A stretch of DNA of 64,000 bases from assembly GCA_021234155.1 (NCBI GenBank), contig JAJEKV010000058.1, forward strand, positions 5,652,600-5,716,599. Reading direction: 5' to 3'. Positions within the stretch are counted from its first letter, which is position 1. Each line of letters opens with the position of its first letter. The stretch comes from Isoetes taiwanensis. Its lineage: Eukaryota; Streptophyta; Lycopodiopsida; Isoetales; Isoetaceae. The notes under the pieces are model-generated. The model searched no databases. It saw only the letters and a program-made list of their open reading frames with translations, and was not told the origin of the DNA. Shown piece after piece: positions 5,717-34,280 of this stretch. Both the position numbers and the translations under genes were made by a program.

Positions 5717-5736
5717 GCTCTTTCATTCTTAATTTT

Positions 5737-6400: not shown

Positions 6401-6663
6401 CACATAGATAAATAACACACAGATGTAATTAAAACAATGTAAAGAATGCAGGTTTTTTAAAGAATATCCCATCCATGTAAAGAATACAGTGTTTTTTGAA
6501 TTCCTGAATGCTCTGGTCTGCAGGCCTTATAGTTTTGCAATATTGAATGAATGGTCTGGCATGCAAGCCTTTTAATTTCATACATATGACAGAATCAGCT
6601 TGTGCATTTTAGTATGAGCACTCAATCTTCCTCTATGTCTTCCAAGAAAATGAAACTCACCTT

Positions 6664-7254: not shown

Positions 7255-7385
7255 CCGCTTAAAAAGTCGATCCATGAAATTTAAATATCCGCTCCCTTCT
7301 ATCGGACCGTCAATTAAAAGTCGATCCGCGAAATTTTAATAACCGCTCGCTTCTATCGGACCGTCGATGAAAAGTCGATCCGAAT
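7255..7385. repeat. Tandem repeat, unit about 60 bp
   Basis: AAAAGTCGATCC is followed by a GAAATTT...CCGCTC..CTTCTATCGGACCGTC block. The block occurs twice, and the AAAAGTCGATCC start occurs a third time just before 7,385. Confidence 0.8.
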
Positions 7386-7542
7386 GAAACCCTCGATCGA
7401 AAGCCGACCTAATCGCCTTATGGAAATCTATATAAGTTTTGAATTCCATTTCTTGCTTTTTGATTGTCGACTTGCTTTCGAGACGCCAAGAACTCCGAAT
7501 TTCGGGAACTCAAGAACTTCGAGGCGCTCAAGATCATCGCGA

Positions 7543-8615
7543 AGATGCCGCCCAAAGGTCGTGGCCGCTCCAAACTTCCGCCGGAGAGAAGATGCTCAAG
7601 GTCGAGTATTGTCATCATTCACGTGTTATTCATTCATTGTTCATTGCTCAGTATTTCTTGTATTTGCTCAGTATCTTACGCCTATGCTCCTGTCTATTAT
7701 TTCTGTAGCAGTGACTTAAATTTCTATAGCTGCTGACACTCCTGTCTATCATTTCTTTAGCTGCTCATTTCTGCTGTGACTTGTATTTGCATCTGCATAA
7801 TAAATTCCTGCTCGTGATTAACTGTTATGTCTATAATTTGTAAAGTAGTATGACCGTGTTTAGTTGGCTTTCGCCGATTATGCAATGGCATCTTTGTAAT
7901 TGGCACGCATTTATGAGTGCATGTAATAATCGGGGAGGTGTATACCATTCTGTGCTTTAGCCTGGCCGGAATTGATGACCACCCGAAATCGCGCTAAACG
8001 TGTATTGCACCGTCGTTTGCAGGGAAGAAGAGACAAAACCGAATGATAGCTCCTATACCTCCTCCTAAGAAAGCAAGAGGCTTGGAAGATACTCCAGCGA
8101 GCTCCAGCTCACAGAAGAAGGGAAAGCCCAATGAGGACGCAGATCCTATGCATTGTCGATGGATGATAGCGGATCCATTATCGAGGCGGAACCATGAGAT
8201 CCTCCATGCCCCGAGGAGAAGATGGATGGCGGTCGCGGAGTGGTATGTTGATGTAGGCAAAACAAATGGTAAGGTGGATCTTGTGTTACACTCCAGAAAG
8301 AAAGAGACCGATCTTATGAAGAAACAAGGTATTCTTATCACTTGTGAGGAGCAGGATGACATCCGTTGTCAACTTCTAGTGGAGGTTGTGAAGAACCACA
8401 AGAAAGATCTCGATTTTACATGCGTGGCAACCGCTTTCAAAGATGGTCCGATGAAGAAGGGCGTGAGTGCCGAGTCATGTTTCAAGCACGGATGGCCTCA
8501 AAATACCGCCCTCACTCCGGTTTCTATTAGTGAAGGGGTGTCTGCAAGTAGTGAGGAGAGCTTTATGAGGACCTTCTCCAAGTTACTACACGGAGGAGAT
8601 GAAGCATCAAAATGA
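7543..8615 (+). CDS. Candidate two-exon gene, unrecognised basic protein
   Basis: A short first exon may begin at ATG 7,543 (MPPKGRGRSKLPPERR, a basic chromatin-like start). After about 400 bases the sequence TCGTTTGCAG at about 8,013-8,022 gives a good acceptor, and an open frame then runs to TGA at 8,613-8,615. It reads GKKRQNRMIAPIPPPKKARG, a Ser-rich linker, then a globular part with RWMAVAEWYVDVGK, VDLVLHSRKKETD and LLVEVVKNHKKDLDF. The donor for exon 1 could not be fixed, and the phases do not join cleanly with the obvious GT, so the first exon is uncertain. The gene lies on the plus strand in the left transposon region, in line with the coding stretches at 9.7-11.6 kb. No family recognised. 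Confidence 0.4.
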
Positions 8616-8981
8616 TATCGAGGGATGTCACGAAGATTCTTTGGACTTAGGAAAGGACATCCCTACGCAACAGATTGATGGCATTTTGGCGGAAAATGAC
8701 TCCGAAAAGAAATTGCGGTGGAGGCAATGAGTAGGCTAGTCAAGTATGCGAGACAACTACCCACTTGGCCAATCTTTTACACATCCCATCCATGTTGACC
8801 GCCCCGGGTGAGATCACATAAGTCAAGTCTTGTTAGCGGGAGGTATGACCCCGAGCATGCAAGAGAAATATTGAGGCGATGGTGAGGAATCCAGGCCAAG
8901 TTCCTATGCCCAGACGTGCTTCCTTGGGATAAGAAAAAGGATGCTCCACTCCAAAGTGGACAACACTAGAAGAGCTAATGA

Positions 8982-9224
8982 GTGGAGAACCCTAATGTAT
9001 GCTTCCTTATTATTGATCGGACAAACATTCTATTGAGGCACAACGATCCCTATCCAACCAGGCTTTGCAAACTGGACAAACAATGTATACGCTACATTAC
9101 AACCACGGAGGTGTGGGTTTCTAAGCCCCATACCCCGGCAGAGGACTGGCGCGAGATTAGTGCAACATTGAGCGAAATGGGCGAAGTCTTTCTTTATAAA
9201 AGGTTAGTATATTTAGTGGAATAG
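8982..9224 (+). pseudogene. Unrecognised coding-like ORF (80 aa)
   Basis: The frame contains DRTNILLRHNDPYPTRLCKL and TPAEDWREISATLSEMGEVF and has the look of a structured protein piece. It follows the unrecognised gene at 8.0-8.6 kb on the same strand and could belong to it. A TAG ends it just before the palindrome cluster. Confidence 0.25.
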
Positions 9225-9289
9225 AGTCGATATATCAAGTAGCAATACTTGATAGTAGAATAGGTCAGCGTGTGTCAAGGCGTGCCAAT

Positions 9290-9715
9290 TACTTTTGGCA
9301 TTGAATTCATCTTTGCCAATTGGCGCTGGCGTGTATTCGTCATGGTGAATTGTCGGCATGAATACACGCCACGCAGCGTGAATTGCCAATTTCATCAGCG
9401 GGACGAATACCACGCCCGGCGCCGAATCACGATTGCCTTGCCAATTGGCGCATGTATTCATCTTTGCCCTAGCGGGCGAATACATGCATGCGCCGAATTG
9501 GCGCTGGCGTGTATTCATCTTTGCCAATGCGCGCTGGCGTGTATTACCGTCGCAATGTCGGCATGAATACACGCCGGCGCCGACCGGCAACGCATCGCCC
9601 CGATCAAAATGTAAGATATTGGCAATTGGCGTGTGGCGTGTATTCATACCGACAACCACGGGGACGAATACACGCCAGCGCGAATTGGCAAGCATGAATA
9701 CACGCCACATTACGC
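9290..9715. repeat. Cluster of GCGTGTATTC modules in both orientations
   Basis: Eleven copies of GTGTATTC, or its complement GAATACAC with one-base variants, lie here. Those read on the plus strand are at about 9,331, 9,452, 9,509, 9,538 and 9,638. Those on the minus strand are at about 9,360, 9,405, 9,478, 9,565, 9,666 and 9,696. Most are fused to GGCGCTGGC or GCCAGCGCG and joined by ATCTTTGCCAATTGGCG spacers, so neighbouring modules form hairpins. The local GC content is far above that of the flanks. Long open frames across the cluster on both strands are by-products of the repeat. Confidence 0.8.
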
Positions 9716-9730
9716 CATTGGCACGGCGCT

Positions 9731-11560
9731 TTGACCTTTCCCGATTATCCACGTTTGCTTGATCTAAAAGCGGTTCTTTTTGTGCCCCGCTCATATTGGC
9801 CGACATGCTTTCCTCACACGTGCAGCCCTTACGTGGAACAACTCCGTCATGCCCGCCAGCAATGGATAGAATATGGAAGACCCCTGCAAACAAAACAGGG
9901 AGGAACGAAGTCTGAGGAGTTTAAAGCATTGGAAAAGACCTTGGCTCGGACTATCATCCAAGATAGGAAACCAAGAGCCAAAAAGCGAAAAAAAAACTGG
10001 GAGGAAGCGGTGAGGCGTCGCCGGCGGCTTCAGAGGAGGTCCCACCGATGCCTACAAGATCGTCTTTCGCTAAGGGCCTAAGTCCGGGCGGCGGAATGGA
10101 ATGAGTACGGGATGCTTATGCTCGTAAAGCGCCTACGGACCCAATGGGACGAGGGCCTCCTCAAGATACTTCAATATTTGATCTCAAGACTACCGAGATG
10201 AGGAAAGTACAGGGCCTCCAAGATGATGAAATCATTTGGTTGTTAAATCAATGCATAAACAAAGAAGTTATGTACAAGAAGGCTTCTTCAGTTAAGGACA
10301 AAATGTCCTTCATTGATTGTTGCACTCATATAAAGAACATCACGAGTTATGAAGGTAGCGATTGGTGAAGAACTTGAGAAGCTATCCGGTGATGTAACAT
10401 TGTTCGAAGTCGGCACTGCTAGACAAGTATGGTGTCGCTGATGACATCAAGAAATACGTCTTTTGGTCGAAGGAATTTTTGCAAAAAGAAATCGAAGAAC
10501 CAACGGCACACCTCAAAGCTATCGATAAGGTGATGGCCGGTGAGAAAGAAGAAAGGTTGCCGCCCGAAAGATGTTGGTGGTGACTTACCGCACTCCAATA
10601 CCCGGTCTCTGGCTATAAAGGTCTCCCTACCCGATACAACAATAGGCCCTCGTAATATTTTCTGTTTGTATTGGATAGCAGGATCAGTAAAAGGAGAGAA
10701 GGGGATGACTCAACAGGAGTATAGCAGTTTTTTTAGTAGCTGCATAGGTTTAACAACTCAGAAGCTCTTTACTATTGTCATCATATGCCCCTCAGGAGAG
10801 CCTCATATGCATGCTTTGGTGGCTTCATACGACTTGGAATGCCTAAAGGTCGTTAGGGAAGGCTCTCTTCTCTTTGAGACAAAGGATCCGATTTGAGGAT
10901 GCGATATAAAAGCACTTGTATAATCTTCATAATGATATCCCTTGTGCTAGATGACGACTATGAGGTAGCTAAGAGCAAAGGGGCATCGGATAAAGGTGCA
11001 TGGCAGTGTTTTCTTTTGGATGAACCCAACTTGAAAAATGTCTTCTACAAAGCAGATGATGAGGATGAAGCAAATGAATGCGAGGAATTTGATGTTCCTA
11101 ACCTCTACCGCAAAGACATCACTCTGGAATTGCTGACAAAAGAAAAGGGACCCTTGAATAAACATGGGTTTGCAATCAATCTGGCAAGCTATCTTGTTGA
11201 GGCATTTGCACCACTTGATACCACTCGTGTGAATTGCATGTTGGAGGGTATATTGGTAGAGAGGCCAAGACATCAAGAAGATGTTTAAGTTTAAATCAGC
11301 AATGATGACCAAATTCGTGGATTTGCTTGAAGTGTTTTCGAAAAGGTACTAGCCCGCGGCTGATTGGGGTCCTGTCAAAGAAAAAAAAAAACTGTTGGCT
11401 TTGGTACCTTACGAAGGGCGAAGCGGGAATACTAGTTCACAAAAGCCTACGAGTGCAACTCGGAATGTTCAAAAAGCAATGCAACCCCGAGGAGAAGGCC
11501 AAAATGCTAGAGCGGGAGCGTGAGACCATGGAGAAAAAATTTGGAGTCCATGCTTCATAA
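9731..11560 (+). pseudogene. Unrecognised multi-piece coding region of the left transposon
   Basis: Several consecutive plus-strand frames read as one or two decayed proteins. The first (9,731-10,081) has a lysine/arginine-rich end (RKPRAKKRKKNWEEAVRRRR). The next (10,144-10,368) has QDDEIIWLLNQCINKEVMYK. A stretch at about 10,370-10,530 reads GVADDIKKYVFWSKEFLQKE. Then come 10,540-10,896 (GPRNIFCLYWIAGSVKGEKG, SGEPHMHALVASYDLECLK) and 10,893-11,288 (ASDKGAWQCFLLDEP, an acidic DEDEANECEEFD linker, LLTKEKGPLNKHGFAINLAS), ending with 11,327-11,560. Frame changes between pieces are small, so introns, decay or base-calling errors are all possible. I recognise no domain. Position and strand suggest cargo or an accessory gene of the element that ends at 12,793. 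Confidence 0.35.
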
Positions 11561-11919
11561 CATTCCAACCGGTAATGTCCGGCTTGAAGTACGAGTCGCG
11601 GCAGTTCGACGATACCGGCCGGGATGATCATGCAAGCTCGGATGCAACCACCGAGGTTAGGAATCAAACCCCCGTGGTAGCTTTCATAGAACGTAGCGGT
11701 CCGAACTTAAGCGGTGGCGTTCATGCCGACGAAGTAAGCATCAGGGAGTGAAGTAGACGCTAAGCTGCTTTGCGGATGGCGACGATGAAAGGTAATTCAC
11801 GCCCGGTAGCGATATGTAGCTTTGTTATGAAGGATAAAACGCGTTTGGCGTGTATTGCGAACACTTTTGCATGGCTAACTCTTTGTTTTCCATGGTTCGG
11901 GCTCCACCGCTTGTGACAA

Positions 11920-12535
11920 AATCATTGTCTTGATCCGAATGGTATCTGTGTAAAACGTTTCCTAAGAAGCTTATTAGCAGTGATGACTTGAGCAAGTCCT
12001 CTAGAATCGAATACTAAGTGGATCTATCCTCGTCCACACTTAGAAGATATGATGAATGAGGCGTTCAGATTGTTTCGAGTTGCCATCTGGTCCTCAATGG
12101 AATGCAGAAATGTTGAATGAAGTACTTAGGGTGTTACCAGGCATGAATCGAGACTTTGTGACGATTTGGGACCAAAGTAAGTGTATAAAGTTTCCATATC
12201 CAAGAGATCTGGATGGCAAACCGGTCTTCGTGAAACATCTTGGTACTATGATGGATCAGCTTGGCATTCAAAAGAAAGAGGACATCATAATAGTAGATGA
12301 TGATGCTCTTAAGTGCTTTTATAATCAAGGTCAGGCTCTAAATCCACCAACTTATACTCCACAAGATTACTCAACAGATGAGTTTCTAGTACTATTCATG
12401 TCCATCATGAGTGGCTTGGCTTCTGGTAAAACAATATCAGATGTTGTCGAAACGCATCCAGAACTAGATCGGACTAAGGAGATGGATCCCTATCTTGAGA
12501 GTTATTTGACAAAGAAAGGACTAGTCCCTCCATGA
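11920..12535 (+). pseudogene. FCP1-like HAD phosphatase domain protein (left element)
   Basis: The sequence matches the FCP1-like (NIF) HAD family in order. It has a degraded motif I (LDPNGIC), then KWIYPRPHLEDMMNEAFR and FRVAIWSSMECRNVE, which correspond to the motif II region with W-S-S. A one-base shift near 12,113 leads into VLPGMNRDFVTIWDQSKC, then GKPVFVKHLGTMMDQLG and IIIVDDDALKCFYNQGQALN, the motif III region. The last 159 codons (12,056-12,535) are open and end in TGA. The normal second Asp of motif I is Asn, as in some plant relatives, so activity on phospho-substrates is doubtful. A relative lies at 32.7-33.4 kb. Both stand just inside a transposon right end, which suggests element cargo. 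Confidence 0.65.
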
Positions 12536-12761
12536 TGTAATCTTCATATCAAGTGAATACAATGTAAAAAGTGTTCTCTATATATTGATGTGTTGTTATC
12601 TACAAATGCTAATCAAACACCACATTCTTCTCACTAAAACAAGAAAATGTTAAACCACCCACTACTACAATGCAAAAATTTGCAACAATGCAAAACAGCA
12701 TGTCACACAACAAAACACTATATTGAGAAAAGGGTATGCAAAAGTGGCGTGCTTTTGGAAC
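12536..12761. other. 3' region between FCP1-like gene and transposon end
   Basis: AT-rich, with no coding signal. The motif ATGCAAAAGTG at about 12,737 recurs near the right end of the inner element (about 34,181), which supports a shared subterminal region. Confidence 0.5.
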
Positions 12762-12793
12762 AGACATAAATCCAATTTAAATGAATGATGGTT
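12762..12793 (+). repeat. Right terminal repeat of the left transposon
   Basis: The 32 bases starting AGACATAAATCCAATTTAAA and ending GAATGATGGTT match the right TIR of the inner element (34,245-34,276) with three or so differences. The similarity continues leftward (GCGTGCTTTTGGAA here, GCGCGATTTTGGAA there), giving about 41 of 47 matching bases. The sequence just outside begins TATAATAAAATAG, which is found uninterrupted at 53,902, so the boundary is supported independently. The left end of this element was not found. Confidence 0.75.
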
Positions 12794-19275: not shown

Positions 19276-20449
19276 AGGACGTTGCATGTTTCTAATAGAA
19301 GACTTAGTGCATTAACCTATCTCTATTGTTGTTGAATCTTATTATTGCATTATAATCAGATTTGGATGAGGGCATATTCTATAGCATATACCCTCACATC
19401 CCATCAAGCCATACACATAGTCGATTGACGGGGTCAATTGTTCATGTGGCTCTATAATTGAGGCTTTGATGACCATTAGGTAAAATAAGAATCTGATTGG
19501 ACTTATTAATAGACACTTCCAATTGAATAGCAAGTTTCTTTTCATCCTGCAATAAACAAGGGTGTGTCATTATGTTGAAGTTCATTCTCAATATAGGAGC
19601 CAAACGCGATGCTCAGATATTGTAGCCCTAGATATTCGAACACCATATGCAAAGCACAATTCCAAATAGTCTAGCCTCATGCATATTCAGAATCAAACTC
19701 AATGTCTTCCACATGACATCTTTGAAGAGGATCTGGAGCATCAACAATCGCAGGAATAACTACCACATCTGCACAACATGAAACCCTTGCATAAAAATAA
19801 AAGACAAGAAACAAAAATGGCTCTAAATGGTTATGCACTTTTGCAAGGATTCCTGTTCATGCACATTGTATATGTTCATGAACATTGCATATGTTCATGC
19901 CTTACTTGTTTAACAAAAAACCAAAGAAAAAGAACAAAGTATGGACTAGAACTAATTTTTGGCTCTGCATATTGGCTACACATGAATAGATCATAAATGA
20001 AGTATGATTATATTATACAACAAGCATGAGTTACAACAAGGGCACTGCACAAAAATCGGCATGAAGGAATCTACAAAAAGAATCCATTGCCAAATAATAA
20101 AAGAAGCCCTTTATACTTAACATCTCGGATATGCTTTATAAGAACAAAAAGTTGTGCAAATACACAAAAACACACATGTGCAGAAAAATCTGGATATGGG
20201 GATGCATAAGACCACAATGGGAATTATGGTGATGCAGAACCCAAATATAGAAATATTTGTGCTCTGCAACAACTTAACAACCGCTATTACGGGCTCTGCA
20301 TCAAACCTATGAAATCTAACTTAAGGAAAAAAAAACAAACAAAGAGAAGTTGTAAGATGCCAAACTTGCTCATTTATCTACGTATTTATATCACTTTACT
20401 ATTAACAATCTTAGGTTATTTTATCGATCGTTATGAAAGGGCACGATTC
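19276..20449. other. No gene recognised
   Basis: AT-rich. No frame with a coding character was found. A short duplicated string (CATATGTTCATG / TATATGTTCATG) lies near 19,870-19,900. Confidence 0.4.
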
Positions 20450-21430
20450 TCTATCCCGAGCGTTGAGGAAAAACAAACTCTCTAAAGTCTGCAGTCTCTT
20501 TAAGAAGCTCGACCCCTTTGGAATAGGAGTGTAAGAATCTTCAATGACTCGAACTAAAGTAGGAAGACAAAAAGCTTTCTTCCTTCGAAAGCCATTTAAA
20601 ATCTATTTGAACATCGGGTCAATCGATCATGGGTGTGCCCTACAAGTAAAAAATCCGAGCTTTACTTTTCCGAAGATCCTTAGCTCCACTAGCATAGCAC
20701 AATAAGCAAAGAGTGTTTGATTCTTGTTCTCTCTTGTAGTGTTGTCAAGTTGCAAGTAGAGCAATGTGGTAGTTGCTCTTGCTCGCCATTGAGACCTTAT
20801 TAAGGATTGTAATTGTCGTGTTTGGGTCACCATGCAAGTTTGGATACGTCAAAAATACTTTACACTTTAGACTTCCTTTAAAGACCATGGCTCCTACAAG
20901 GTGGACTTTAACAAAACATTCCTCCTCGCACATCTTTTTGGAATATTTAGAAAATGGGGTAGAGTTGTCTTTTTTGATCCATTCCATCAATTACAATGGA
21001 CATATATATTGCAATGGACGTTCGAGAGCTTTTTTTTTTTTTTCGTGTTTGGCAAGCTTTCTTCTCTCTGCGCTTGTTGTTCACTATGTCCAGCAAGATT
21101 CTTGCCTAACAATGTCCCAAAAAGAAATCGGGTTAAAAAATTTTTCTTCAAAGCAAGTGATAGGATGGAGGACATGAGCTTACTTTTTTCGACCCTCTGT
21201 CTTTGCGGTTTCGTTGACTTTTTAATTCTGCACATCTTGAGCAAACAGACATTCTGTGTCTCCTTGGAATTTTCACAAGGCCAAATTCACTTTTCCACAG
21301 TCTGGTGAAGTGTGAGTAAGAGATGTGCTGAAACGGAATGCATGTCTCTTTGTATTCTTTGAAGACGTCTTTTTTTGTAATGTTATGCAGTGAGATGATA
21401 CATGTTGCTATTAGGCAACTTCTCACATCT
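20450..21430 (-). pseudogene. Outer DUF7869-type gene, middle and C-terminal part
   Basis: Minus-strand pieces show the conserved order of DUF7869-type proteins. First comes SYSHFTRLWKSEFGLVKIPR with a SVCSRCAELK zinc-like pair (about 21,330-21,180), then DGM-like MMEWIKKDNSTPF at about 20,985, then LQLDNTTRENKNQTLF and ELRIFGKVKLGFF (about 20,760-20,640), with RAHP and SIDPMF remnants of the GHT-x-x-D-x-D motif. I recall DUF7869 from plant, algal and animal genomes with an RNase-H-like pattern of conserved Asp residues. A transposase role is inference. This part belongs with the N-terminal part at 24.2-25.4 kb. About 2.8 kb of foreign sequence separates them. Decayed. Confidence 0.6.
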
Positions 21431-24240
21431 ACTTATTTAAAAAGTTTTTGGGGTGTCTTGCTGATGCCGGTGTGCCCTTTTTTCCGGCGTTACATTGGAA
21501 GAAAAAACGATTTTCCGGCATTGTTTTCGCCTTTCCGGCTCCTTCCCCTCCCGTTACTATTTTGCCCCCAAAAAACCGTCGTTCTTGATTGTTCTACTGT
21601 GTGTAGCAGAGGAGCGGATAGACCGTTTCAGTCCTCTCGCAATATGATTCTGGGCGGACGGTGACTTCATGGAGGACGGAACCAGACTAAGGAGCATCGA
21701 GCCATTTTTTGCAGATATCTAAACCATTTTGATGGTTTGAGATTTTTGTTTTTGATGTTCTACAATGAGGTTCGGTTTTGTTTATCTATGCAATCTTTTA
21801 GATTCGTTTAAATGAGTTTTTGTTGATCTGAGTTCTATTTTTACCACAGATGAAGTGAAGCATGCACCAGATTCTTTGGCTTTAGTTATTCTATTTATAC
21901 AGCTATCACGGTATGAGCAAGAGGAGCCGGCATGCAATTATGGGGCCGTTGAGATTTCTCTGCTGCCAATCCGTTTATTTTTTCCTTTCTCCACTTATAG
22001 AAAACGATGCCGAGGTCGCAACACAAAGCTTTCAATCTGAAACTCCGTATCTCCATTTTCCAAAGCTTTTACAGCCAGCCATTTGATTCTAGAAGACCCT
22101 GGAGCAGGAATATTGCATCTTTTTGGGATTTTGGTTAGTATGCGAGCATTGATGCCCTCGGTTATGGCGGACTAACTTGCATATGAAAAAGAATCCGCGG
22201 GTCGGTATTGACTCCATTAGTACGAAAAATACATGCTGCAGAACTGTTCCTATTTTGGTATCTTATTTTGGGTTCTTTGGTTTAGACTAAACCGCCTTTC
22301 CAAGTTTGCAAATCACATTCGGGGTAAACTCTTTATGGTTTCTTAAATCTCTATTTTGCAGAAATCCAACTCTATTTTGCAGAACATCTGATTTTCTATG
22401 TAGGTAAGTTTTCGTACTATTTTGCAGGCATTCATGACAGATTTCTGGCAACTGACCGATCTAAAATTGTGGGAGAAATCTGGCTGATGGTAGTGGCAAC
22501 TTTCAAAATTTAAGCTCCTTTCGACACAAAGCACTTTGGTTCCAGGTATAATTTTCCTTGCATACAAGGGATGCTCTTTTATGTTTTCTCATTCTGATTC
22601 TGTTCTTTTGAAATGCTTAGCCCTTGCAATATGCCATGATTAACATTTGCTTGCTGGAGAAGGACGTTTTTAAGTCTAGGGTTCAGGTAAAATATGCTCA
22701 ATGTATCTCTTGCTATTTTAATTTCTATAAATGTTTGATCTGAATAAATCTTTAATTGTTTCCAGAAACATTTACTTAGCTGACCATATTTTGGGTGCAT
22801 AGATCCATTTTTCGTCAGCCATTCAAGCCTCTTTGCATTTGTTTGAGTAATGCTTAGATTTCTTTTGCCATTGAAGGTTTGCTTTCTGATCTTTTTCCTT
22901 TAAATTCATTACCACGATTCTCAGAATTTTTTGGCAATTCTCGGATGCTAATCCACCAGATTTATGCTCTTCATACTAAAATACGATCCGTAGACAAATC
23001 TTTTGAGAGAGTCGATTTCCCAATTCTAACATTAACTTCTCGATCCATTTCCAAATTTAACTTTTGTTGTTTTATGCATATGTATAAGTGTAGTTACCAT
23101 CGTTTTCGACATTGTTCTATTGTAGGAATCTTATATTTCAAGTTTTGAGAACCAACAATAATGTCGTTTTTGCATTCCTTACAGAAAGAACATTTGTCTA
23201 TTTTTCATGCAAGGTGCATAAGATGATTTAATCATGTGTTGTTTTTTTATGATGTTGTTGTAATGTGTAGGTTCTCGAAAGCTATGGAATGGAGCAAGAA
23301 TTTTCCTTTCCAGATGTTCGTTGGTACTGTTTTGAAGATCCTTTTAAAGCAAAGGTATATGTATTTGTTTTACATCCTTATTCAAAACAAATTTAAGTAG
23401 GAACAGGTTCATTGCTCATGCTAGCCCTATTTGTGAGTCCTTTGATGCCAATGTTTCTAATTACTGGAGTCAATGAGGAGCACCAAAAGCAGAATCCAAT
23501 TTTCGTGTAAAGGTAGTACTTAGGAAATCTTATTATTATGCATATATAGGTCTCCAACGTATAAAAATGTAGAAATTAGCTAGATAGAAGTTGAACAATT
23601 GTTTGTGGCCATAAAACTCCCTTGGTTTTCTCAGACCGCCATTTCTTCGTTAATATTAGAACTATGAGCATAAAATCTACGATCTGATTGTATGCCAGAT
23701 GTCTTAAAATTGTGTGAACTTCCATGCGAAGAAATAGGCATTGTCCATTATGTTGATGACTGAACACTGTATTGAAAAACAAATTCATTGAAGAAGGTAG
23801 TAAAGAGAAATGGACGAAGAAGTTGTTGATAAACCGCCATTTCACAATTATTGTTTCATTGCCGCTTGAGGAAGATCTTTTACTACAATAATCTTTTTGC
23901 AATCATGTTTTACATCCCTTATAATTCTACAACTTATTTACAAGAAAGGAATGATTGGTTCTACTTTTTTTTTTTTTAAAGGGTAATAGATCTATGGTTT
24001 ATAACCACTTTGGAGGATGAAATTTTTCCATCTATAAGTTTGTTCCTATAAAGAAATGTAGTTGCAAGTTAAAGCTTAGAGCACCCCCTGCATTTAGAGC
24101 ATCCATTCCTATATGCCTATGTACCTTTTCTTGGCACAATGTTTTAAAACATGAAAAAAGCAGGCCCTAAATTTTAATGTAAACATACATGTTGGGATGA
24201 AAGTTGTGCATGTATCTTATGGACTTTTGAGGATGTTATC
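21431..24240. other. Insertion between two parts of the outer DUF7869-type gene; gene-like, unassigned
   Basis: These 2.8 kb separate the N-terminal and middle parts of the outer gene and share nothing visible with it. The first 250 bases are GC-richer and look like a 5' exon or UTR (CCGGCGTTACATTGG, CCGTCGTTCTTGATTG). The rest is intron-like, T-rich sequence. One candidate exon lies at 23,272-23,355. A captured host-gene fragment is possible. No terminal repeats were found. Confidence 0.35.
23272..23355 (+). pseudogene. Candidate isolated exon (28 codons)
   Basis: AATGTGTAG as acceptor and AAAG|GTATATG as donor bracket 84 bases that read VLESYGMEQEFSFPDVRWYC followed by FEDPFKAK, with no stop and a length divisible by three. 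No family recognised and no partner exon identified. Confidence 0.3.
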
Positions 24241-24243
24241 TTT

Positions 24244-25404
24244 ATGATCATAAATAAAGTTGCACCTCATTATGGTGTAATTGCCAAGTTAGAAATAAAA
24301 CTTATGCTCGGGGCACCACTTAATTTATGCTCATATCTAAAAAGTTTGAGGAAGTTGATCATGAGTCCATTCTTACCAATGTCAACATGCATTGTTGTTG
24401 AAGTTGCACATATGAAAGGCCGGGCAAAACACATCCCAACATTAGCCCGGCAATGGTGGGCACCCGATTTACTAGTGTCTCTAAAATATTTCTCCATCCA
24501 TGTAACAATGAGCCAGGCATGCATAGTTACAACTCTTCTTGGTCCCAAGTGATCATCAATTCTTTGGGTTTTTGTCGATCTTTTGTGTATTCCGAGACAT
24601 TCTTGTGGACCTCGGTGGTGGACAACCATGAAGCATTTTTGGCAGACTTGTTCACGGTTAATGTAGTGCAAGAAGGTGTTGCGGTCTGGTCTTACATGAT
24701 AAGCTAAGTAGGCATTCTGGTCTGCCAATGTCATTGAACTATAGTTGTCTCTAACCCGCCGTAGTTTGGCCATGTTAAACTGCTGATGCAACCCAATAAG
24801 CAAAAGATTTAGTTCTCGTGGAGTCTTCTCATTTTGTGTTCATCCATAAGGTTTCTTCTTCTTATAGAGGAGCATGCTCTCAAACTAAAATCCACCTTGA
24901 ATTTCTTTGAAGATTGGCTGGAGAACATGTAATCTCCTTGTTCCTCGTTGGTGTCATCATCTTCTGATGAAACTTCTACTCTAGGGGTGATGGCCCATAA
25001 GAGGTTGTGGCATCCATTTGTTCTTGTACCATCTTGAAAAGGAGTTCTTGCAAACATCTCCTTTAGAGCGGACCGAATTCCAAAATCCATGTGTCACAAC
25101 CGCTGTGTGAAGAGTAAGTGCATCGCCGCAAAGATCGCCCTCATTTGTAGTGAAGTCCGGTGAGAGAAATTGTAGTGAACCTCCACGATCTTTCGTGTTT
25201 TTCTGTGTTCCTTGTATGTTTGCACGAAGGGGCAAAACTACAAAAAGGGGGTAGCTTGTTCTTGAGCACCGTTGTTGTGGAGCATCTCTGGTAGGTGGGG
25301 ATGGAACGAAGGGTGGTGGCGCATGCTTTTAACCGGTGGTGATGCCTTGGAAGGAGATCCCGGTGTCATGTCTCTTTGGACTTGGTGGCGGTTGGAAGGG
25401 TGGT
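24244..25404 (-). pseudogene. Outer DUF7869-type gene, N-terminal part
   Basis: On the minus strand the frame coming from the right (RNRLPP, left of the inner element's far end at 34.28 kb) continues here as PPPSPKRHDTGISFQG. It passes a Ser/Pro-rich stretch, ITPRVEVSSEDDDTNEE, and then a structured part from about 24,790 with NREQVCQKCFMVVHHRG, DDHLGPRRVVTMHAWL and WMEKYFRD. This N-terminal region with a Cys pair precedes the zinc-like and catalytic-like parts in DUF7869-type proteins. The inner element's left TIR begins at 25,405 within this coding region. Stops show that the gene is decayed. Confidence 0.55.
25401..25404. repeat. Target site duplication TGGT (left)
   Basis: TGGT directly precedes the left TIR. 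The same four bases directly follow the right TIR at 34,277-34,280. Confidence 0.6.
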
Positions 25405-25436
25405 AACCATCATTCAATTAAATTGGGATTATGTCT
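25405..25436 (+). repeat. Left terminal inverted repeat, 32 bp
   Basis: Begins AACCATCATTCAATTAAATT and continues GGGATTATGTCT. It is the exact reverse complement of 34,245-34,276 over all 32 positions. Confidence 0.85.
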
Positions 25437-25718
25437 TAATTTTGGGATAAATTTTATATTGCACTTTTTAGTAACTTTGTTAAATTCACTTTTTAGTATC
25501 TTTGTTGCCCTTAGACTAGAATAGGCGTTAACATATAATCATAATACGGGAATATAAATTCACACCTTAACTTCAAATTACAAATTCATATATCATGAAA
25601 CTCAAGTAGTACACAACTTTTATTAAAAGTGATTGATACATAGCTTGTTTATCATTTTTCCACCAACATCCCCAAGGATATGAGAAACCTTATTCCTTAC
25701 ATCACGAGGTATTGTAAC
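25437..25718. other. Subterminal region of the inner transposon, left
   Basis: AT-rich and non-coding. CACTTTTTAGTA(A/T)CTTTGTT occurs twice (about 25,461 and 25,489). Confidence 0.5.
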
Positions 25719-28070
25719 TCACCGGCTGTTTACTAGGAATAGTTTTTGGAGTCCACGAGTACAATATCTGGTTTCAATGTCTAGCCAAAGATCGGGATCA
25801 CTAGGATTTCTTCTCCACCTCTTTGTCCAACAATCTGAATATCTTTCTTTATAGGTGACATTACTCCAACCGATGTCTTTGGACACCACCATTCCACTTG
25901 GCACCTTATTGAAGTTAACATCACCTTCTTCTTTGCAAATATCCAGATAGTCCATCCCAACCACCTTGGATAGGTCTCTAGATCTATTTGGTTTTACTAC
26001 TACAAATTGGTGGCACTCCACGTCGTTAGAAGGTTCATAAGAATCCATGCCTAGATATTTTGGCCTATCCTTCTTAGGACCAACATAGTGTTTATCCAGT
26101 TGAGGAGGAGCATATGCCTTCACAATGCTACTAATGGTACCATCATCTGCCGTCGGCACCACCTAATGTTTTCCACTTACTTTTAGGGAACCACCCTTCT
26201 TTTCGGCTCTTAGAGGATGTGTCTACCTCATCCAACAAGTTGATCACCTTCTTCCAATAATCTATCAATGCACCCATTAGTGTCATTACGAATTAGTTTG
26301 CCAATGCTTGATGTAGTCATTGATGCCATCCTTAGTCAATCCCAATTGCTTGACTTCTTGATTGGTTTTAGAGCTTTTTTGGTTGACGGGGAGGTATCAT
26401 AGGCTTGCCATTTGCATCCCTGCTACCAAATTTCTGCCCCACCTCTCCACTTCTCCTCTGAAGGTCTCATTTTCCATTGCACGATTGGAATCCCTTCTCT
26501 CACCCAAAAGTGAATTGAAGAGGTCTAGAATGACCTTCCATGTCGAGAGCATAACCATCCACAAAACTCTTCCAATCGGGCACTTCTTCTATGATAGATC
26601 CTATAGGAGATGGATTTGTACATCCATGAAATATTTCCAATAGCCTTTGGGAAAGTTGGTAACTGGCGTGTATTTGTCTCAATACATGACTAAATTTTCC
26701 AAACAATGCATCCACATCCTCATGAGTATGTCCTGGCATTAGGAACCCCAAATTGACTCTTTCAAAAATACCCACAATTTGTTAAGTAGGATAGGAAAGA
26801 AAACATCCACTGTTCTTATTTTGACCAGCACAATTATCTAGTTGCAAGAGGAGCTTTACGGGCAGATCTCGAGGTTTTAGCGAGAGATGTTGAAGCTCCA
26901 ACATGTTCATTAGGTCCATTCCTCCTAAATCTTGCCTTGCTAAACTTTTCAATACTATTAGGGTTCCATCTAACAATGCACTATGTAGTGCACGGCTAGT
27001 TGTAGGATCCACATGGGTGACCATTGTAACCCCTTCTCATAGTTTCTTAAACACCTCATGATACTCCCAATGTGAAAAAATCGGACCATCACTCCACAAC
27101 TCTAAACCGAAATGGCCATAATAGGTGCGAGGCGCCCATGCAATATTGCCCTGATCATTGAAATCTGCAAAGGGTATGATCTTCCACATGACTTAGGAAT
27201 GTACTTGAATTGTGGAAGACAAGTCTTCTGTTGGTCCATTTTATCATGTATAATACATAGATAGTTATTAGGTTCCATTGCGAGATAAGGTCCTCCACAT
27301 CCATGTTGATCTACATGATAGTTGATCCGTCATATGGTCCTTCATATGTTCCCTTATCTTTGCCCTTAGACTTGGTTGCACGGTCTTATCTAGTGTCTCC
27401 TTGACTTAGCACATAAATTGCACTTGGCAAAGTTGTTTGAAGTTGCTATGGTCACATGCTTGAAATGCTTATTCCATAGCCTACTAAAACTGGGCTGGGA
27501 TATAGAGGCTACTCAAGTTCCCGAAGCAATGCATTTATTTCCTCTAATATGCTCTCTTCGGGTACAATGGGATGGCAATCTCTTTTCAACAATAACTCTA
27601 CCATTTCATCCTTCTTACTCTTATGTGGCATGTTTTACGCATTGAAATCCACATATCTTTCAAATATTTCCTTTGCAGCTATAGTTCTTGAGGTAGGCCT
27701 TACGAGGCCCGGTGTTCCCATCTGCAATGCAATTTTACTACCATTTTCATGTCTCTTTTGCCCGGTTATTGCAAGAAGAGGTTGGAATTCCATGTATAGC
27801 CATCCATGCTTTTGAACATATCCACTTTCCATTCAATGGAATCTTTTTCTTCTTTGATCTTTGATCCTCAATTGCATAGCCAAATATGGTGTACATGAAA
27901 TTTCTCCGCTATCACACTTATGTTTCGATATGTAGCTCTTGCTCCCACCAACTCCTCTATTGTGAACATTCTAACACAAGAAGCCCAACAACATTCACCT
28001 CCTCTAACCTTCTTACAGAACCATCATGGTAGGGAGTGTCTATTCTAAATTCTCAGGTTGCCTGTTGGAG
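25719..28070 (-). pseudogene. DUF7869-type putative transposase of the inner element, main part
   Basis: Reading leftward, an N-terminal Cys/Trp region (LNGKWICSKAWMAIHGIP, about 27.8 kb) is followed by a Cys pair FAKCNLCAK (about 27,420). Next come MDQQKTCLPQF (about 27,235-27,200), LQLDNCAGQNKN (about 26,840-26,805) and VNLGFLMPGHTHEDVDALFG (about 26,755-26,700). The C-terminal part includes WKSFVDGYALDMEGHSRPLQ and, at 26,162-25,719, a 147-codon open frame with KKDRPKYLGMDSYEPSNDVE. The three spaced acidic motifs (DQ..T, DN..NKN, GHT..D.D) are the hallmark of DUF7869-type proteins and resemble an RNase-H-fold nuclease core. DNA transposition is inferred from the TIRs around it. Several stops and shifts break the frame. 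The upstream part lies beyond the LINE. Confidence 0.65.
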
Positions 28071-28079
28071 CCAAAACCG

Positions 28080-29720
28080 AGTACATGGGGTGAGACAAAT
28101 GAGAAACGCTTCCCGTGCCGTTAAGCGGGTTCAGAAAAATGCATAATACCTTAGATCATGCCCTCACTTTATGAGTCTTGATCGAGAAGGCAAAAAGACC
28201 GTGTAAAGCCCTTTTCCTTGCTTTCATTGATTTCTCTAAAGCATTTGATCACGGTACCCGAGGGGATGAGTTAGGGCAATCGAATGAAAGAAATTGGCGC
28301 CCCAACCGCACTTATGGGGGGCGTGATTCTCAGTATAAGGAAGTTAGAACCGGCTTGCGAGACAATCCATGTGAAATTCACAAAGACGATAGGGGTAAGG
28401 CAGGGCTGCCCGTTGTCTCCCACCCTTTTGGACTATATATAGATGAATTACAAAGAAAGTGGATGGAGCAAAAAGGTCTTAAGGGGAACGCAGCTAGGAG
28501 ATTATGTAATTCAACTGTTGCTATATATGCGGACGATGTAGTATTGCCGGGCGGAATCACCCGTGCGCTTTACGGTACATCTACAAACACTAAGTGAATT
28601 TGTCTAGCAAGGAAAATGAAGGTTAACTTATCCAAATCAAGATCATGGTTTATGGCACAATCCAAAGACCACGTTTACTTACAATGGAGAATTGCTAGAA
28701 ACCTGTAAGTTATTATAAGTATCTTGGCTTGGAATTGAGTTCGGGATTATAAGTGGAAAGAGGTATTAAGAAGAGAGGTAGGTGGGGGAAGCGGCTTTGT
28801 ATGGCATGCTTAGGCGATGCCGTAAGACATCATTGCTTGAGAATGGAAGTTGAAAAAATGCTTTTAATGGCCGGTCCAAACAGTAGCATTATATGGGGCT
28901 CGGTGTGATGGGGCCTATGTCAAAGGCTTATGGAAGCAGTGGAATGCATTCAAAAAGATTTTACGCAAGAAGAACTCCGAATCAAACAACGCATTCCATA
29001 TCCAATTATGTCATAAGGTGTACGTACCGGTTGGAGGCAGAGGCATTGGTCCACTATTGTTTTTGTAAAGGCTATCTACTCTAGATGATAATCGACTACC
29101 AAGAAAAGCTATGGAAGAGTCTGCACATACGTGATGGTACAGGGATGTTGGGAATGGGCCGCTACCGGGAATCAAGGAAGCTAAGCGGCGTATCCGAGCT
29201 AAGTGTAAGAGACACGTAGACAGGTTGCGTGTGATGGAGCGGATCTGAGAATTTGAACCAGCACTAAAATGACATATTATATGATGAGGTGAACCCGATG
29301 GTATACTCGTGATCAAGCATATCTTTTCAGCCAAGATCCCACGCCCCGAGGCAAAACTATTGCACGATACCGGACGAAAGTTGCCGACAGCTCCAAATTG
29401 AAGTAGGCCGATGGACCCGGCATCCCTGAGAGAAGAACGGGTTATGCTTACTTTATGCACGATGGGGTTGTTGAGGATGAAGAGCACACATTTTTAGCAT
29501 GCGCGGATATACGTACATTAGAAATTCATTTGATATCGACTCAATAGCTTTTATAGTCTCTTAGACATTGATCCAAAGAAAAACCCGGTTGCTACCTTAA
29601 AAAGATTGAATTGCATAGATTGTTTTTGACTCAATTGAGATCAAACAACATGTAATGGCTGCTCCATGACCTCAAGGTCCTAAGGAGCATGATAATAAAT
29701 TATTATTATTATTATTATAA
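28080..29720 (+). mobile_element. 5'-truncated LINE inserted in the inner transposon
   Basis: Plus-strand reading shows reverse transcriptase motifs in order: AFIDFSKAFD (about 28,215), KAGLPVVSHPFGLYIDELQ, AIYADDVVLPGG (catalytic Y/FADD, about 28,525), and MKVNLSKSRSWFM. Next is a decayed C-terminal domain with LYGARCDG and a stretch parallel to the LINE at 13.9-14.6 kb. The 3' end is AGGAGCATGATAATAAATTA followed by a run of ATT units to about 29,720, a usual LINE tail. The element separates the N-terminal piece of the DUF7869-type gene from its main part. The 5' end is set only approximately. Many stops and shifts are present. Confidence 0.75.
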
Positions 29721-29929
29721 TCTGACTTGCATCTTTTGGTGGGATAATGTTTGAAAGTTGGAAGTGGCCTCTTGTTACACTAATGTGAACATTGTTGACA
29801 ATGGTTCTACATCTAAAGGAAACGTGTAGTTCCCTCAGGTTGAATATCGTCCCCTAGGCCATGCAACAATAGTTGGAACCTCTAGTTGCTTCACACAAGC
29901 TAGGCATTCTTGTTTTGCCGAACCCTTTT

Positions 29930-30338
29930 CCTTCCAATTGTCATATAATTTTGAGATTGCCACACCTAACCCCGTCCTCCCTAATCTTTCATCATTCATC
30001 GCATTGATAGGATCTCGCTAGAACAATAATCCCTTCTCCCATCGCCTCTCGTTTGCATGCATGCGGGATCTTGACCTTTTTGTTTTCCAATCGACCCGAG
30101 TATAAAGTACAATTTCCTTTCCTTTGCCATCATCCTTTTCATTTGAGGTCTTTTTCCTTTCCTTTGCCATCATCAACATCATTTGAGTCTTTTCCTTTCC
30201 TTTGCCATCATCAACATCATTTGAGGTATTTTCCTTTCCTTGGACATCATGTTCATTAGTTGGGAATTTCTCCTTGCCTTGATTAGCATCATTGGGGGCT
30301 TTTTTTAGCATTTTGCATGCCATTGACCTAGAATGCAT
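29930..30338 (-). pseudogene. N-terminal domain of the inner element's DUF7869-type gene
   Basis: The frame starts near 30,338 (MHSRSMACKMLKKAPNDANQ). It has a repeated charged stretch (NDVDDGKGKEKT, NEKDDGKGKE) and then KEIVLYTRVDWKTK, NAMNDERLG, GVAISKLYDNWKEKGSAKQE. The last part matches the fragment at 3,900-4,166. The charged stretch arises from a duplicated codon block on the coding strand at about 30,115-30,235. It is parted from the remainder of the gene by the LINE. Confidence 0.55.
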
Positions 30339-32185
30339 AAAATATATAGTAAGTTAGCATATCCAAATAACCTCTAACTAACATGTTCATAAATGAAAGC
30401 CTCGTATGTCTTATTCTATTTGATCATTCTATTTATATAATGGGATTCCCCAAGTTATTTTCCTCAACATTATATAAAAATAAAACCCTCTACTTATAAC
30501 CTTCAACTTGTATCCTATAATAACCTTAGAAACAACTTTTAAGGTTATTATAGGTTTGCGCTTTAAGGTTAAGAAGTTTATTATAAGTTAGAAAATTTAA
30601 GGTTGGAAAGTTATTGTAGGTTAAAAAGTTTTAAGTTTAGAAGTCTAACTCATGAACTTTCAACCTTATAACTTAACTATTAACTTAAAACTATTTTAAA
30701 AACTTATAAGTCATAACTTTTAAACTTAATAACCCTTAAAACAATTGTCCTTAAAACAATTAACCCTTGTAATAAATTTTTCGCGGAAGTTATAATGGCG
30801 CTGTACTAAATTTTAGAAGCGATTATTATTTCAAGTTAGCCTTCCTTTTCAAACTTTTCTCTCACACTTTCGAACATTAGCGCTTCCGCTTCCAATTTCG
30901 CATTCCGTAACCGATTCCAATTTCCGGCTTTCTCGGCTTCTATCCGCTTCGGCATCATCAATCTACCTTCAATCTATCTTCTCGCTTTACGGGCATCAAT
31001 CTATCTGGCTGCGATGACCCTAAGGAATCAATCTATCTCTGCATGACCTAAGGAATCGTCAATCTATCTTTCGGCTTCAATCCGCTTAGAGCTTTATCCG
31101 TTTTCGAGCTTCGAGCTTTTATCCGTTTTTAAGCCGCTTCGAGCTTTTTATCCATTTTTAATACGTTTTTTTTTTTTCTGCTTTTGGAACGGCTTATCCG
31201 CTTCTGGCTTCTATCTGCGGCAATCTCGACTTCTATCGCTTCTCGGCTTATCGCATCAATCTCGACTTCTATCGCTTCGGCTTCTATCTCGCTTTAGGGT
31301 TTTCGGCTCAAAGGTTTTTTCGCTCAAAGGTTTGTAGGCTCTATACAAATCAGCGTTTTTTGGGTTTCGGCTCCTCTACAATCTCGACTTTGAATAACTT
31401 TGGTTTTGTGTTAAAGCTTCGGCTTCACCGGCTTCGGCTTTCTCGGCTTTTCGGCTTCTTAAAGGCTAAAATCATCTCACTATTGGCTTCTCGAATCAAA
31501 TCAACTTTGATTTTCGATCTTTTTGGTTTTAGAAGGCAAAGGCTCAATTCTCAGGCTTACGTAACACAAATAGATTAGTATTTCCTCATTATATACATAA
31601 AGTAGTTATTTTACATAAAAGTTCCTCACAGATTGGTTACGTGATCTTGCCTATATGATCCGGCTCTTATTCTATTTCACTAGGTCTTCCTCTATCTCTG
31701 TTCTAATTAATGATCTAAAATAATGAAGTAAATAATGATCTATGATCTATCTCGCTCTATGATCTATGATCTATCCGCTTCTATGATCTATGATCTATCC
31801 ATTGTATGATCTATCTGGCGTATGATCTATCTCACGATTCTCCCCAGATTCGCTTCTTATTATATTTCACTAGCTCTTCCTCTATCCGCTCTAAATAATG
31901 AACTAAAACAATGAACTAAATTTTGAACTAAACAAGGACTATTATTATTATATATCCGCTCTAATCGGGTTTTATATTTTGAATTCGTGATTCGCATGAT
32001 TCTCGTTAGAATAATATGTTGAATGGGAGAAATCGCGATTGGCGATTTCTATTTTGGGTTACGCTTTTTTCCACTAGATTAATCAAAGCTCGGCTCGGCT
32101 TTTCTTTTCATATGCTCTATACAAATCGCGCCAGAGGAAGCAACTAGGGGACCAATCTAAAAGGTAAAAAGCAAAGCTTCTACCT
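30339..32185. promoter_or_regulatory. Divergent spacer between the two genes of the inner transposon
   Basis: No coding region is seen. Three zones stand out. At 30,480-30,780 AT-rich repeats of the form AAGGTTA(TTATAGG) and AACTTATAA occur in both directions. At 30,850-31,500 there is a pyrimidine-rich zone with many CGGCTTC and ATCTATC strings. At 31,735-31,835 there is a (GATCTAT)-type repeat. Since the flanking genes point away from it, it probably holds both promoters, but no single TATA box can be assigned. Confidence 0.4.
31735..31835. repeat. GATCTAT-rich short tandem repeat
   Basis: ATGATCTATGATCTATC and variants occur about eight times in 100 bases. Confidence 0.75.
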
Positions 32186-33411
32186 CTAAGACCGAAATAC
32201 CGCAGATTTGCTTAAGGAACGGGAAGGATTGAGAAAGCTATTGGTTGGCCGCAACTTCATGGATGAAACCAAGATCAGCCAAATTACCAAATACCTATCG
32301 ACATGCCTGGGCGGAACATCCTTGACCCTAAAAATTTAGAACATGTTGAAGATAAGCAAGATGATGCTAATAACAATAATGAGGATGAAGCGGACTCCAA
32401 ATCTGAAAACACTAGCCGTGTTAGCGTAAAGAGTAATGAACTATCAAGCATAGTTCCCATCGCATTATCTCAATCGATGTGGTTGGTGCTTCTATCGACC
32501 GGAGACAACTCGTAATAAGGATGCAACTAAGAAGTCACAACGGGAATGAAGAAGAAGAAGAAAGGTATCGTGAACAATATTCCTTTTTTGATATCCATGC
32601 ATTTTGTAGCATATAGAAATCGCCCTGCGCGATTTAGACTTTCCTAGAGATCATATTTTTAAATTATGTTGACATGCATCATTCATGAAATCGCGCTGGC
32701 ATTTTCGCTACCATTTCTTTTGTCTCATACGCTATTGTTCTCCTTACGTAAATAATTTGGCTTCCCCAAAAGTACCGGGTCTTTGATTTGAATGGTGTGC
32801 TATGTAGAACGTTACCTAAAGCAACGTTCGAAAAGTCATGGTATGCGCAACAACCATTTGAGACACGCATCAAATATGTTTACCCGCGCCCTTATCCGAA
32901 GGAGATGTTGGACCAGGCCTTCCGGTATGTTTGGTTGTGCAATTTGGTCATCTATGGAGCATAGAAATATACGGGATGTTTTGAAAGTAGTGCCTCGAAG
33001 CTAAATAGAGACTGGGCCCATCCGGGATCAAAGCAAATGTGCTTCATTCACAAACCCTAAAAAGAACCCCAGGTAAAAAGATATTTGTGAAATGCTTGCG
33101 CAACATGATGGATGCCCTAGGTGTTGAGGATAAGGAAGGCATGATCATTGTGGATGATGACGCTTTAAAGTGTTGCTTCAATCATCCACGTGCATTGAAT
33201 CCTACCGCCCTATCATCCTCAAGATTTTGACAAAGATGACTTCCGCGCGCTTTTGTTAGTGTCTTGCATGAAATAGCTTCAGAAAAAAAACGGAAGAAGA
33301 GATACAAACACTATACCAAGAACTTGATCTGGACAGGGGAAATTGATGGGGACCTTGAGAAAATCGTTCTAGAAAGAGAACTTTTTGATATATATGTATA
33401 CAGGAAATACA
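32186..33411 (+). pseudogene. FCP1-like HAD protein of the inner transposon
   Basis: A first part (about 32,205-32,520) reads LLKERE, KLLVGRNFMDETKI, then an acidic stretch (NNNNEDEADSKSEN) and a lysine-rich end. After about 220 bases a second part begins with motif I, VFDLNGVLCRTLPKATF (about 32,780), then KYVYPRPYPKEMLDQAFR and GCAIWSSMEHRNIRDVLKVV. Next come KKIFVKCLRNMMDALG and MIIVDDDALKCCFNHPRALN (about 33,140-33,200). The order equals that of the relative at 11.9-12.5 kb. Motif I has Asn in place of the second catalytic Asp in both. The region contains shifts and stops. Some of the gaps could be introns. Confidence 0.6.
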
Positions 33412-34244
33412 CTTTCCAAAAGTTTTGAATATGAAATATACTTTAATTTAAAGGTTTAGAATTTATATTGTGTTCTTATATCAGCATTATTGGTTACATT
33501 ATGCGTATTGTTTTTATATTATGTGTATGGTTTGCTATACTTGCAATAATTTGTATGTATATACCGGCCAATAATTTAGTGTGTATAAATAGGCATGCAT
33601 AAAATTGGCAAACCATCGGCCGGTCTTGCCTACGCTTGTTATTATGGCACATTTTATTACCTCGCACGATGAACCATGCGGACCTCTGCGGTGCCGCGAG
33701 CTAGAAATAGAACTTGGGGGACGGGCTTGATGTCGTTGCTTTGAATCCGTCCCGCTTCTATCCCGATCCCTTTGATGTTGTAATCCATCTTATATGGAAT
33801 CCGAGCATGGTTTGTTCATGATCGGCGGGATCTCGAGGACCGCTGCGGCGCTGACGGCGATGAATCGGATTAGTTTTTAAGTTTATGTTCTATTATAATG
33901 CCTTATTTATGCCAAGCAAATGGCGCCACGTAGCGATTTGAACCATGAAAAAACTCGCTTTGTGTAGCAACTTGCTTTTGTCGTTATTTTTTCGTAAAGC
34001 ATTACAATTTCAATGTTTAGATTTCGTTTGTCGTCCGTGAATGTGCTTAATTAATAAGTAATTTCTTGTTTTTCTATTGCCAACATTCTCGTCATAATAT
34101 GGGTCATTTGCATGGAATATTTGAATGACTTTGCATTTCAACATAAAATGCATCTTCCTAGCCCGAAAAATGAACAATGATGCAAAAGTGTGGTTAATTC
34201 AATATAATGGTCAATAAAATGCTTATACGGCGCGATTTTGGAAT
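33412..34244. other. 3' region of the inner transposon, right
   Basis: AT-rich and non-coding to the eye. A GC-richer block at 33,620-33,870 contains GATCCC / GGCGGGATCTCG strings without recognisable content. ATGCAAAAGTG at about 34,181 matches the left element's end region. Confidence 0.4.
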
Positions 34245-34276
34245 AGACATAATCCCAATTTAATTGAATGATGGTT
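34245..34276 (-). repeat. Right terminal inverted repeat, 32 bp
   Basis: Ends GAATGATGGTT. It is the exact inverse of 25,405-25,436 and nearly the same as 12,762-12,793. It is followed by TGGT (34,277-34,280), the right copy of the target duplication. Confidence 0.85.
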
Positions 34277-34280
34277 TGGT

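What the first reader, a model, noticed from the sequence alone, without database searches (positions are those of the whole stretch)
25405..34276. TIR transposon pairing a DUF7869-type gene with an FCP1-like HAD gene
Perfect 32-bp inverted ends, a TGGT duplication and two divergent genes make a well-bounded 8.9-kb element (about 7.2 kb without the LINE). DUF7869-type proteins are, as far as I recall, annotated mostly as orphan domains. Here one lies between TIRs, with three spaced acidic motifs (DQ..T, DN..NKN, GHT..D.D) that look like a nuclease core. The FCP1-like partner is unexpected. This may be an undescribed DNA transposon family, and it would give DUF7869 a function.
Basis: partly seen in the sequence, partly recalled or inferred. 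Interest (0 to 1): 0.88.

Follow-up and report, generated by a model that had tools for sequence, protein, structure and literature searches.

The report
DUF7869 transposon with a phosphatase-like gene
A protein domain so far listed only as 'unknown function' (DUF7869) turns out to sit inside a large, highly repeated jumping gene of what is probably the quillwort Isoetes taiwanensis, where it looks like the enzyme that moves the element, together with a conserved phosphatase-like companion gene whose job is not known.

Summary
Window 25405-34276 is a TIR element with perfect 32-bp ends and a TGGT duplication; ten of ten aligned related loci show the unfilled site with one TGGT. This copy is dead, internally deleted and carries a LINE insert. 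The 32-bp end occurs 3,427 times in the same genome (reversed control 0). The ten copies read in full are about 12.3 kb; 20 of 22 examined end pairs, this one included, have 4-bp duplications. A diverged 18.9-kb relative across the window start has nearly the same ends and the same gene order and orientation.

Whether this is a new superfamily is open: Sola (4-bp duplications, DDD transposase, known in moss) fits in outline, but no Sola sequence could be compared. The host name and the role of the phosphatase-like gene are inferred.

The parts
25401..25404 (.). left target-site duplication TGGT
   Evidence: empty sites with one TGGT in 10 of 10 aligned loci
25405..25436 (+). left 32-bp terminal inverted repeat
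25671..28011 (-). DUF7869 transposase gene, broken (C-terminal and central parts)
   Evidence: tblastn against the open 807-aa C423 frame; Pfam
26710..26733 (-). motif 3 GHTHEDVD (third catalytic acid, inferred)
   Evidence: start of the helix after strand 5 in both models
26812..26844 (-). motif 2 QLDNCAGQNKN (second catalytic Asp, inferred)
   Evidence: end of strand 4 in both models
27231..27251 (-). motif 1 IHDKMDQ (first catalytic Asp, inferred)
   Evidence: strand 1 in both models
28012..29713 (+). LINE fragment inserted in the DUF7869 gene
   Evidence: RVT_1 1.1e-3 on 28175-28597 (below cut-off); gap against C113
29714..30353 (-). 5' part of the DUF7869 gene (Lys-rich N terminus and what follows)
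   Evidence: 63% to the C985 N-terminal frame, 3e-72
32134..32669 (+). end of the gene-2 main coding stretch (most of it deleted here)
   Evidence: 8.6e-32 to the L049 717-aa frame
32770..33386 (+). FCP1/NIF-like HAD domain, broken
   Evidence: 45.7% and 64.2% to the C139 232-aa frame, which scores NIF 2e-17
34245..34276 (-). right 32-bp terminal inverted repeat
34277..34280 (.). right target-site duplication TGGT
1..12793 (.). window part of a second, diverged element of the same type (whole: -6074 to 12793, 18,868 bp, duplication TATA/TATA); gene-2 pieces 8742-9203 and 9821-11393 (+), FCP1-like 11995-12523 (+), 5' piece of DUF7869 gene 3906-4172 (-), right end 12762-12793
20444..25404 (-). 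older repeat into which the element inserted; holds another DUF7869-type gene (core 20513-20764); other copies of the repeat lack the window stretch of about 21429-24477

Best explanation
A cut-and-paste DNA transposon family of at least two diverged lineages in this genome (most likely Isoetes taiwanensis). The DUF7869 protein is the transposase: an RNase-H-fold DDD/E enzyme that recognises the 32-bp ends, cuts the element out and joins it to a target with a 4-bp stagger, giving the 4-bp duplication. A second, divergently transcribed block (a large protein without detected relatives, ending in or followed by an FCP1/NIF-like HAD domain) belongs to the element and probably helps expression or transposition. 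Shown: ends, duplications, empty sites, repetition, gene order, fold prediction for relatives, purifying selection. Inferred: the catalysis itself, which acid is third, and what gene 2 does. The window copy is a dead, internally deleted member.
Confidence: 0.88

Rival explanations
1. The element is a member of the known Sola superfamily (DDD transposase, 4-bp duplications), and DUF7869 is simply Pfam's name for one Sola transposase group; only the second gene is new. This competes with 'new superfamily', not with the transposon reading.
For: 4-bp duplications in 20 of 22; DDD/E-type core; Sola is described as 4-bp TSD, DDD-TPase, mostly 2-9 kb and some over 15 kb, TIR 11-1124 bp, present in the moss Physcomitrella (PMC10741241, passages); a Physcomitrium DUF7869 protein is among the relatives (P0076).
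Against: 0 of 20 duplications are AWWT, the Sola2 form reported in a slime mould (PMC3627910, passages), and 0 of 20 are TTAA (Sola3, recalled). No Sola sequence was available.
Confidence: 0.45
2. Gene 2, not DUF7869, is the transposase, and DUF7869 is an accessory nuclease.
For: Gene 2 has the stronger purifying selection (0.12) and no detected relatives.
Against: No transposase or recombinase profile on the gene-2 frames scanned; DUF7869 has the integrase-like core and relatives in plants and animals.
Confidence: 0.06
3. The FCP1-like gene is a host gene captured by chance, without a role.
For: NIF phosphatases are ordinary eukaryotic genes (recalled); the first motif reads DLNGV instead of DxDx(T/V) (consensus recalled).
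Against: Same place and strand in 56 of 56 linked cases, dN/dS 0.26 over 8 copies, kept in the diverged element at 50-56% identity.
Confidence: 0.07
4. It is a Polinton/Maverick-type or virus-derived element rather than a cut-and-paste transposon.
For: Large size (12-19 kb) and more than one gene.
Against: No polymerase or capsid-like profile among the frames scanned (not every frame of a full copy was scanned); no DUF7869 relative in IMG/VR; 4-bp duplications with a short TIR.
Confidence: 0.02

Closest known systems
Sola superfamily of DNA transposons
   Same: 4-bp target duplication, DDD-type transposase, size range, known in a moss (passages read)
   Different: Duplications are neither AWWT (Sola2) nor TTAA (Sola3, recalled); an FCP1-like gene was not mentioned in the passages read; sequence relation untested
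Tc1/mariner (Mos1, SETMAR) and retroviral integrases
   Different: 4-bp duplications of varied sequence instead of the TA of Tc1/mariner; the only Pfam model above its cut-off on the C423 protein is DUF7869
FCP1/NIF HAD phosphatases (PF03031)
   Same: Above the Pfam cut-off over nearly the whole profile, 2e-17
   Different: Encoded inside a transposon; motif I is DLNGV, with Asn at the second Asp position
DUF7869 (PF25273) proteins of mosses, liverworts, molluscs, sea urchins, corals and lancelet
   Same: Same conserved motifs D.MDQ / Q.DN..NKN / GHTHED.D
   Different: The named hits among the 120 listed of 247 are called uncharacterized, hypothetical, unnamed or DUF7869 domain-containing; their surroundings were not examined

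Membership tests
TIR cut-and-paste DNA transposon | terminal inverted repeats recurring genome-wide | tested here: met
   1718 + 1709 places, control 0; 23 inward pairs of 28 neighbours under 40 kb, from the 100 places listed
TIR cut-and-paste DNA transposon | target-site duplication of fixed length | tested here: met
   4 bp in 20 of 22
TIR cut-and-paste DNA transposon | unoccupied sites | tested here: met
   40 scored matches across the joined flanks, 10 of 10 aligned at the join
TIR cut-and-paste DNA transposon | RNase-H-fold DDD/E transposase | tested here: met
   predicted only, on two relatives; invariant or near-invariant acids. Foldseek alone gave no E <= 0.001
Sola superfamily | 4-bp target duplication | tested here: met
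   20 of 22; feature from PMC10741241
Sola superfamily | transposase sequence that converges with Sola1-3 transposases | not testable with these tools
   no Sola sequence held; key papers not held; no supplement look-ups allowed
Sola superfamily | DDD catalytic triad | tested here: inconclusive
   D-D-(E/D): three candidate acids in GHTHED.D
Sola2 group | AT-rich AWWT duplications (Dictyostelium fasciculatum Sola2, PMC3627910) | tested here: not met
   0 of 20
Sola3 group | TTAA duplications (recalled) | tested here: not met
   0 of 20
Tc1/mariner | TA duplication | tested here: not met
   4 bp, varied; feature from PMC10741241
Mutator (MULE) | 7-12 bp duplication | tested here: not met
   4 bp; feature from PMC10741241
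FCP1/NIF HAD phosphatase | NIF profile above Pfam cut-off | tested here: met
   63.8 bits against 21.8 on the C139 frame
FCP1/NIF HAD phosphatase | motif I DxDx(T/V) (recalled) | tested here: not met
   DLNGV in the frames read of C139, C170, C113, C115, C258, C67, L049 and the window; NLNGV in C423; what looks like DPNGI in the second element

The most novel reading that the evidence does not exclude
DUF7869 elements are a superfamily of their own, outside Sola, spread over land plants and animals, and in this quillwort they form a two-gene system in which a phosphatase-like protein is an obligatory partner of the transposase. It would be a cut-and-paste transposon that may control its own expression or its transpososome by dephosphorylation.
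Probability: 0.3. Interest if true: 0.86.

Novelty: new variant of a known kind. Interest (0 to 1): 0.72.

Why it matters
It gives a testable function (transposase catalytic core) to a Pfam domain without one, found in plants and animals. It accounts for a repeat with thousands of candidate places in this genome that gene annotation may count as host genes. And it shows a phosphatase-like gene kept by selection inside a transposon, which makes the question of what a transposon does with an FCP1-like protein directly testable.

Tried and rejected
Led nowhere: paper searches for DUF7869 (0 papers), for new plant TIR superfamilies (0), for FCP1 with transposon terms (0; 1 paper, listing only, on Trichomonas introns). 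Relatives of the gene-2 main frame in the protein collection (none at E 0.001 among 7993 scored, proteins of similar length only) and in the PDB (best E 1.1). DUF7869 in viral contigs (none). DUF7869 profile against PDB sequences (best E 0.13, a potassium channel). Pfam at E <= 10 on gene-2 frames and at E <= 5 on broken pieces: nothing near a cut-off. DUF7869 in the tool's 14 control genomes: none. I considered a ParB-like (IDGQHS) and a methyltransferase-like reading of gene 2 by eye and dropped both: no profile supports them, and IDGQHS is not kept in the second element, where the aligned stretch is itself broken.

Rows dropped or merged: overlapping tblastn rows at one place (such as gene 2 at 9821-11393) were read as one piece. 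For dN/dS I gave 16 loci for DUF7869 (13 used), 7 and 11 for the two gene-2 parts (7 and 6 used) and the 59 loci longer than 1 kb for FCP1 (8 used); the rest had no stop-free match at the set threshold. One search timed out and was redone in a simpler form.
Full report
What is in the window. The 32-bp ends at 25405-25436 and 34245-34276 are perfectly complementary and flanked by TGGT on both sides. The end is not expected by chance in the window (0.00 in 100 shuffles). The DUF7869 gene lies on the minus strand in pieces between 25671 and 30353, split by a LINE fragment at about 28012-29713; the FCP1-like remnant lies on the plus strand at 32770-33386. Stops and frameshifts break both genes. 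Compared with the full copy C113, the window copy lacks C113 positions of about 4978-10249.

The genome. The window lies in G000 (1,658,258,908 bases, 1110 contigs). The Isoetes taiwanensis assembly is given as 1658.30 Mb in 204 scaffolds plus 909 contigs (PMC8566536, passages). I infer that the host is this lycophyte; no label confirms it. The same passages say that repeats resembling plant proteins were taken out of that project's repeat library, which may have hidden such elements.

The family. With up to 3 mismatches the 32-bp end occurs 1718 times forward and 1709 reverse, the reversed control 0 times. Only 100 places were listed. Among them 28 neighbouring ends are under 40 kb apart, 23 of these inward-facing, and 15 of the 23 are 12.0-12.9 kb apart. 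Ten of these were read in full: 12,282-12,477 bp, perfect 32-bp ends by choice, and a perfect 4-bp duplication in 10 of 10. Of ten further pairs read only at the ends 8 have the duplication; C24 and C284 do not. With the window copy and the second element this is 20 of 22. The duplications have no fixed sequence, 72.5% A+T; none of 20 is AWWT or TTAA.

Empty sites. The joined flanks of the window copy, with one TGGT, match 40 scored genome places across the join at 86-92% (542 first-look candidates; a 41st match is only a fragment). In 10 of 10 loci aligned at the join the sequence runs through with a single TGGT. The target is an older repeat that holds another DUF7869-type gene (window 20513-20764, 43% to the lancelet protein P0029).

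A second element. The end at 12762-12793 (3 mismatches) belongs to an 18,868-bp element whose left end lies 6 kb before the window (the two ends share 31 of 32 bases, TATA on both sides). It carries DUF7869 (57.8% over C423 residues 73-738), gene-2 pieces (31-34%) and the FCP1-like domain (50-56%) in the same order and orientation. This element is also broken by stops and frameshifts.

The genes. The C423 copy has an open DUF7869 frame of 807 aa. A profile of relatives finds 247 proteins (120 listed; 7994 candidates scored), among the named ones Riccia, Physcomitrium, Ceratodon, Branchiostoma, Mytilus, Lytechinus, Strongylocentrotus, Porites, Montipora and Saccostrea. The gene-2 main frame is 634 and 717 aa in L046 and L049; it has no relative at E 0.001 in the protein collection. 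The FCP1-like frame follows; 150 of 6443 first-look candidates were scored, and 30 of the 150 show a 232-aa frame without stops. Its motif I reads DLNGV where the family has DxDx(T/V) (recalled); the counterpart in the second element seems to be DPNGI. Whether gene 2 and the FCP1 part are one transcript is not shown.

Linkage. Of 150 listed DUF7869 hits 26 have a listed gene-2 hit (125 rows) within 20 kb, 25 of them divergent; random placement gives a mean of 1.9 and at most 7 in any orientation. Of 150 listed FCP1 hits 56 have a listed gene-2 hit within 8 kb, all 56 on the same strand and downstream, at a median of 2.0 kb. These lists hold only the best-scoring hits, so the fractions are lower bounds.

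Selection. Pairwise NG86 medians: DUF7869 C-part 0.37 (13 sequences, 75 pairs, range 0-0.85, two of them the same copy), gene-2 main frame 0.12 for its first 320 aa (7 sequences, 21 pairs, 0.06-0.22) and 0.23 for the next 240 aa (6 sequences, 14 pairs, 0.07-0.56), FCP1 0.26 (8 sequences, 17 pairs, 0.10-0.81). Copies came from best matches without stops in the alignment, which lowers the values. Per site, silent changes exceed replacements about 3- to 11-fold in the means.

How it works. Most likely the DUF7869 protein binds the 32-bp ends, cuts them and inserts the element with a 4-bp stagger. The second gene block is kept by selection and by position over large divergence, so it is probably needed for expression, stability or transposition. 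A dephosphorylating regulator is the simplest guess; the altered motif I leaves open whether it is an active phosphatase.

What is known. DUF7869 is found in no paper of the library. Sola is the nearest described kind by outline (passages of PMC10741241 and PMC3627910; PMC4455052, passages, names the Sola1-3 groups; PMC10294476 and PMC9976928, passages, list the superfamilies). The defining papers (Bao et al. 2009; Yuan and Wessler 2011) are recalled and not held, so sequence membership is untested. Searches found no paper on an FCP1-like gene as part of a transposon.

Verdict. A real, large transposon family, decayed in both copies of this window; DUF7869 as its transposase is well supported by prediction and context; the phosphatase-like partner is a real part of the element; a new superfamily is possible but not shown.

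Noticed in passing
window -6074 to 12793 (G000:C1065:5646525-5665392): An 18,868-bp diverged element with nearly the same ends, a TATA duplication and the same gene order straddles the window start; its DUF7869 gene is split, with a piece at 3906-4172 and the rest before the window; a further N-terminal-like piece lies at 6655-6900.
   Followed up: yes
window 20444-25404 and 34277-34423: The insertion target is itself a high-copy repeat (542 first-look candidates) with another DUF7869-type gene closer to the lancelet protein P0029; its own ends were not found.
   Followed up: partly
window 46765-47033: A fragment like the first coding piece of gene 2 (83% to C139 7125-7389).
   Followed up: no
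G000, whole genome: 9902 first-look candidates for PF25273 (150 scored, all over the Pfam cut-off) against 3427 ends: many DUF7869 loci must belong to other families or have lost their ends.
   Followed up: no
C67 against nine other full copies and the window copy: The main aligned piece at the DUF7869 end is 92.9-95.2% alike, the main piece at the other end only 80.1-88.5%: the two halves seem to have different histories or constraints.
   Followed up: no
C279:283817 and 284354: Two ends in the same orientation within 569 bp, perhaps a nested arrangement.
   Followed up: no
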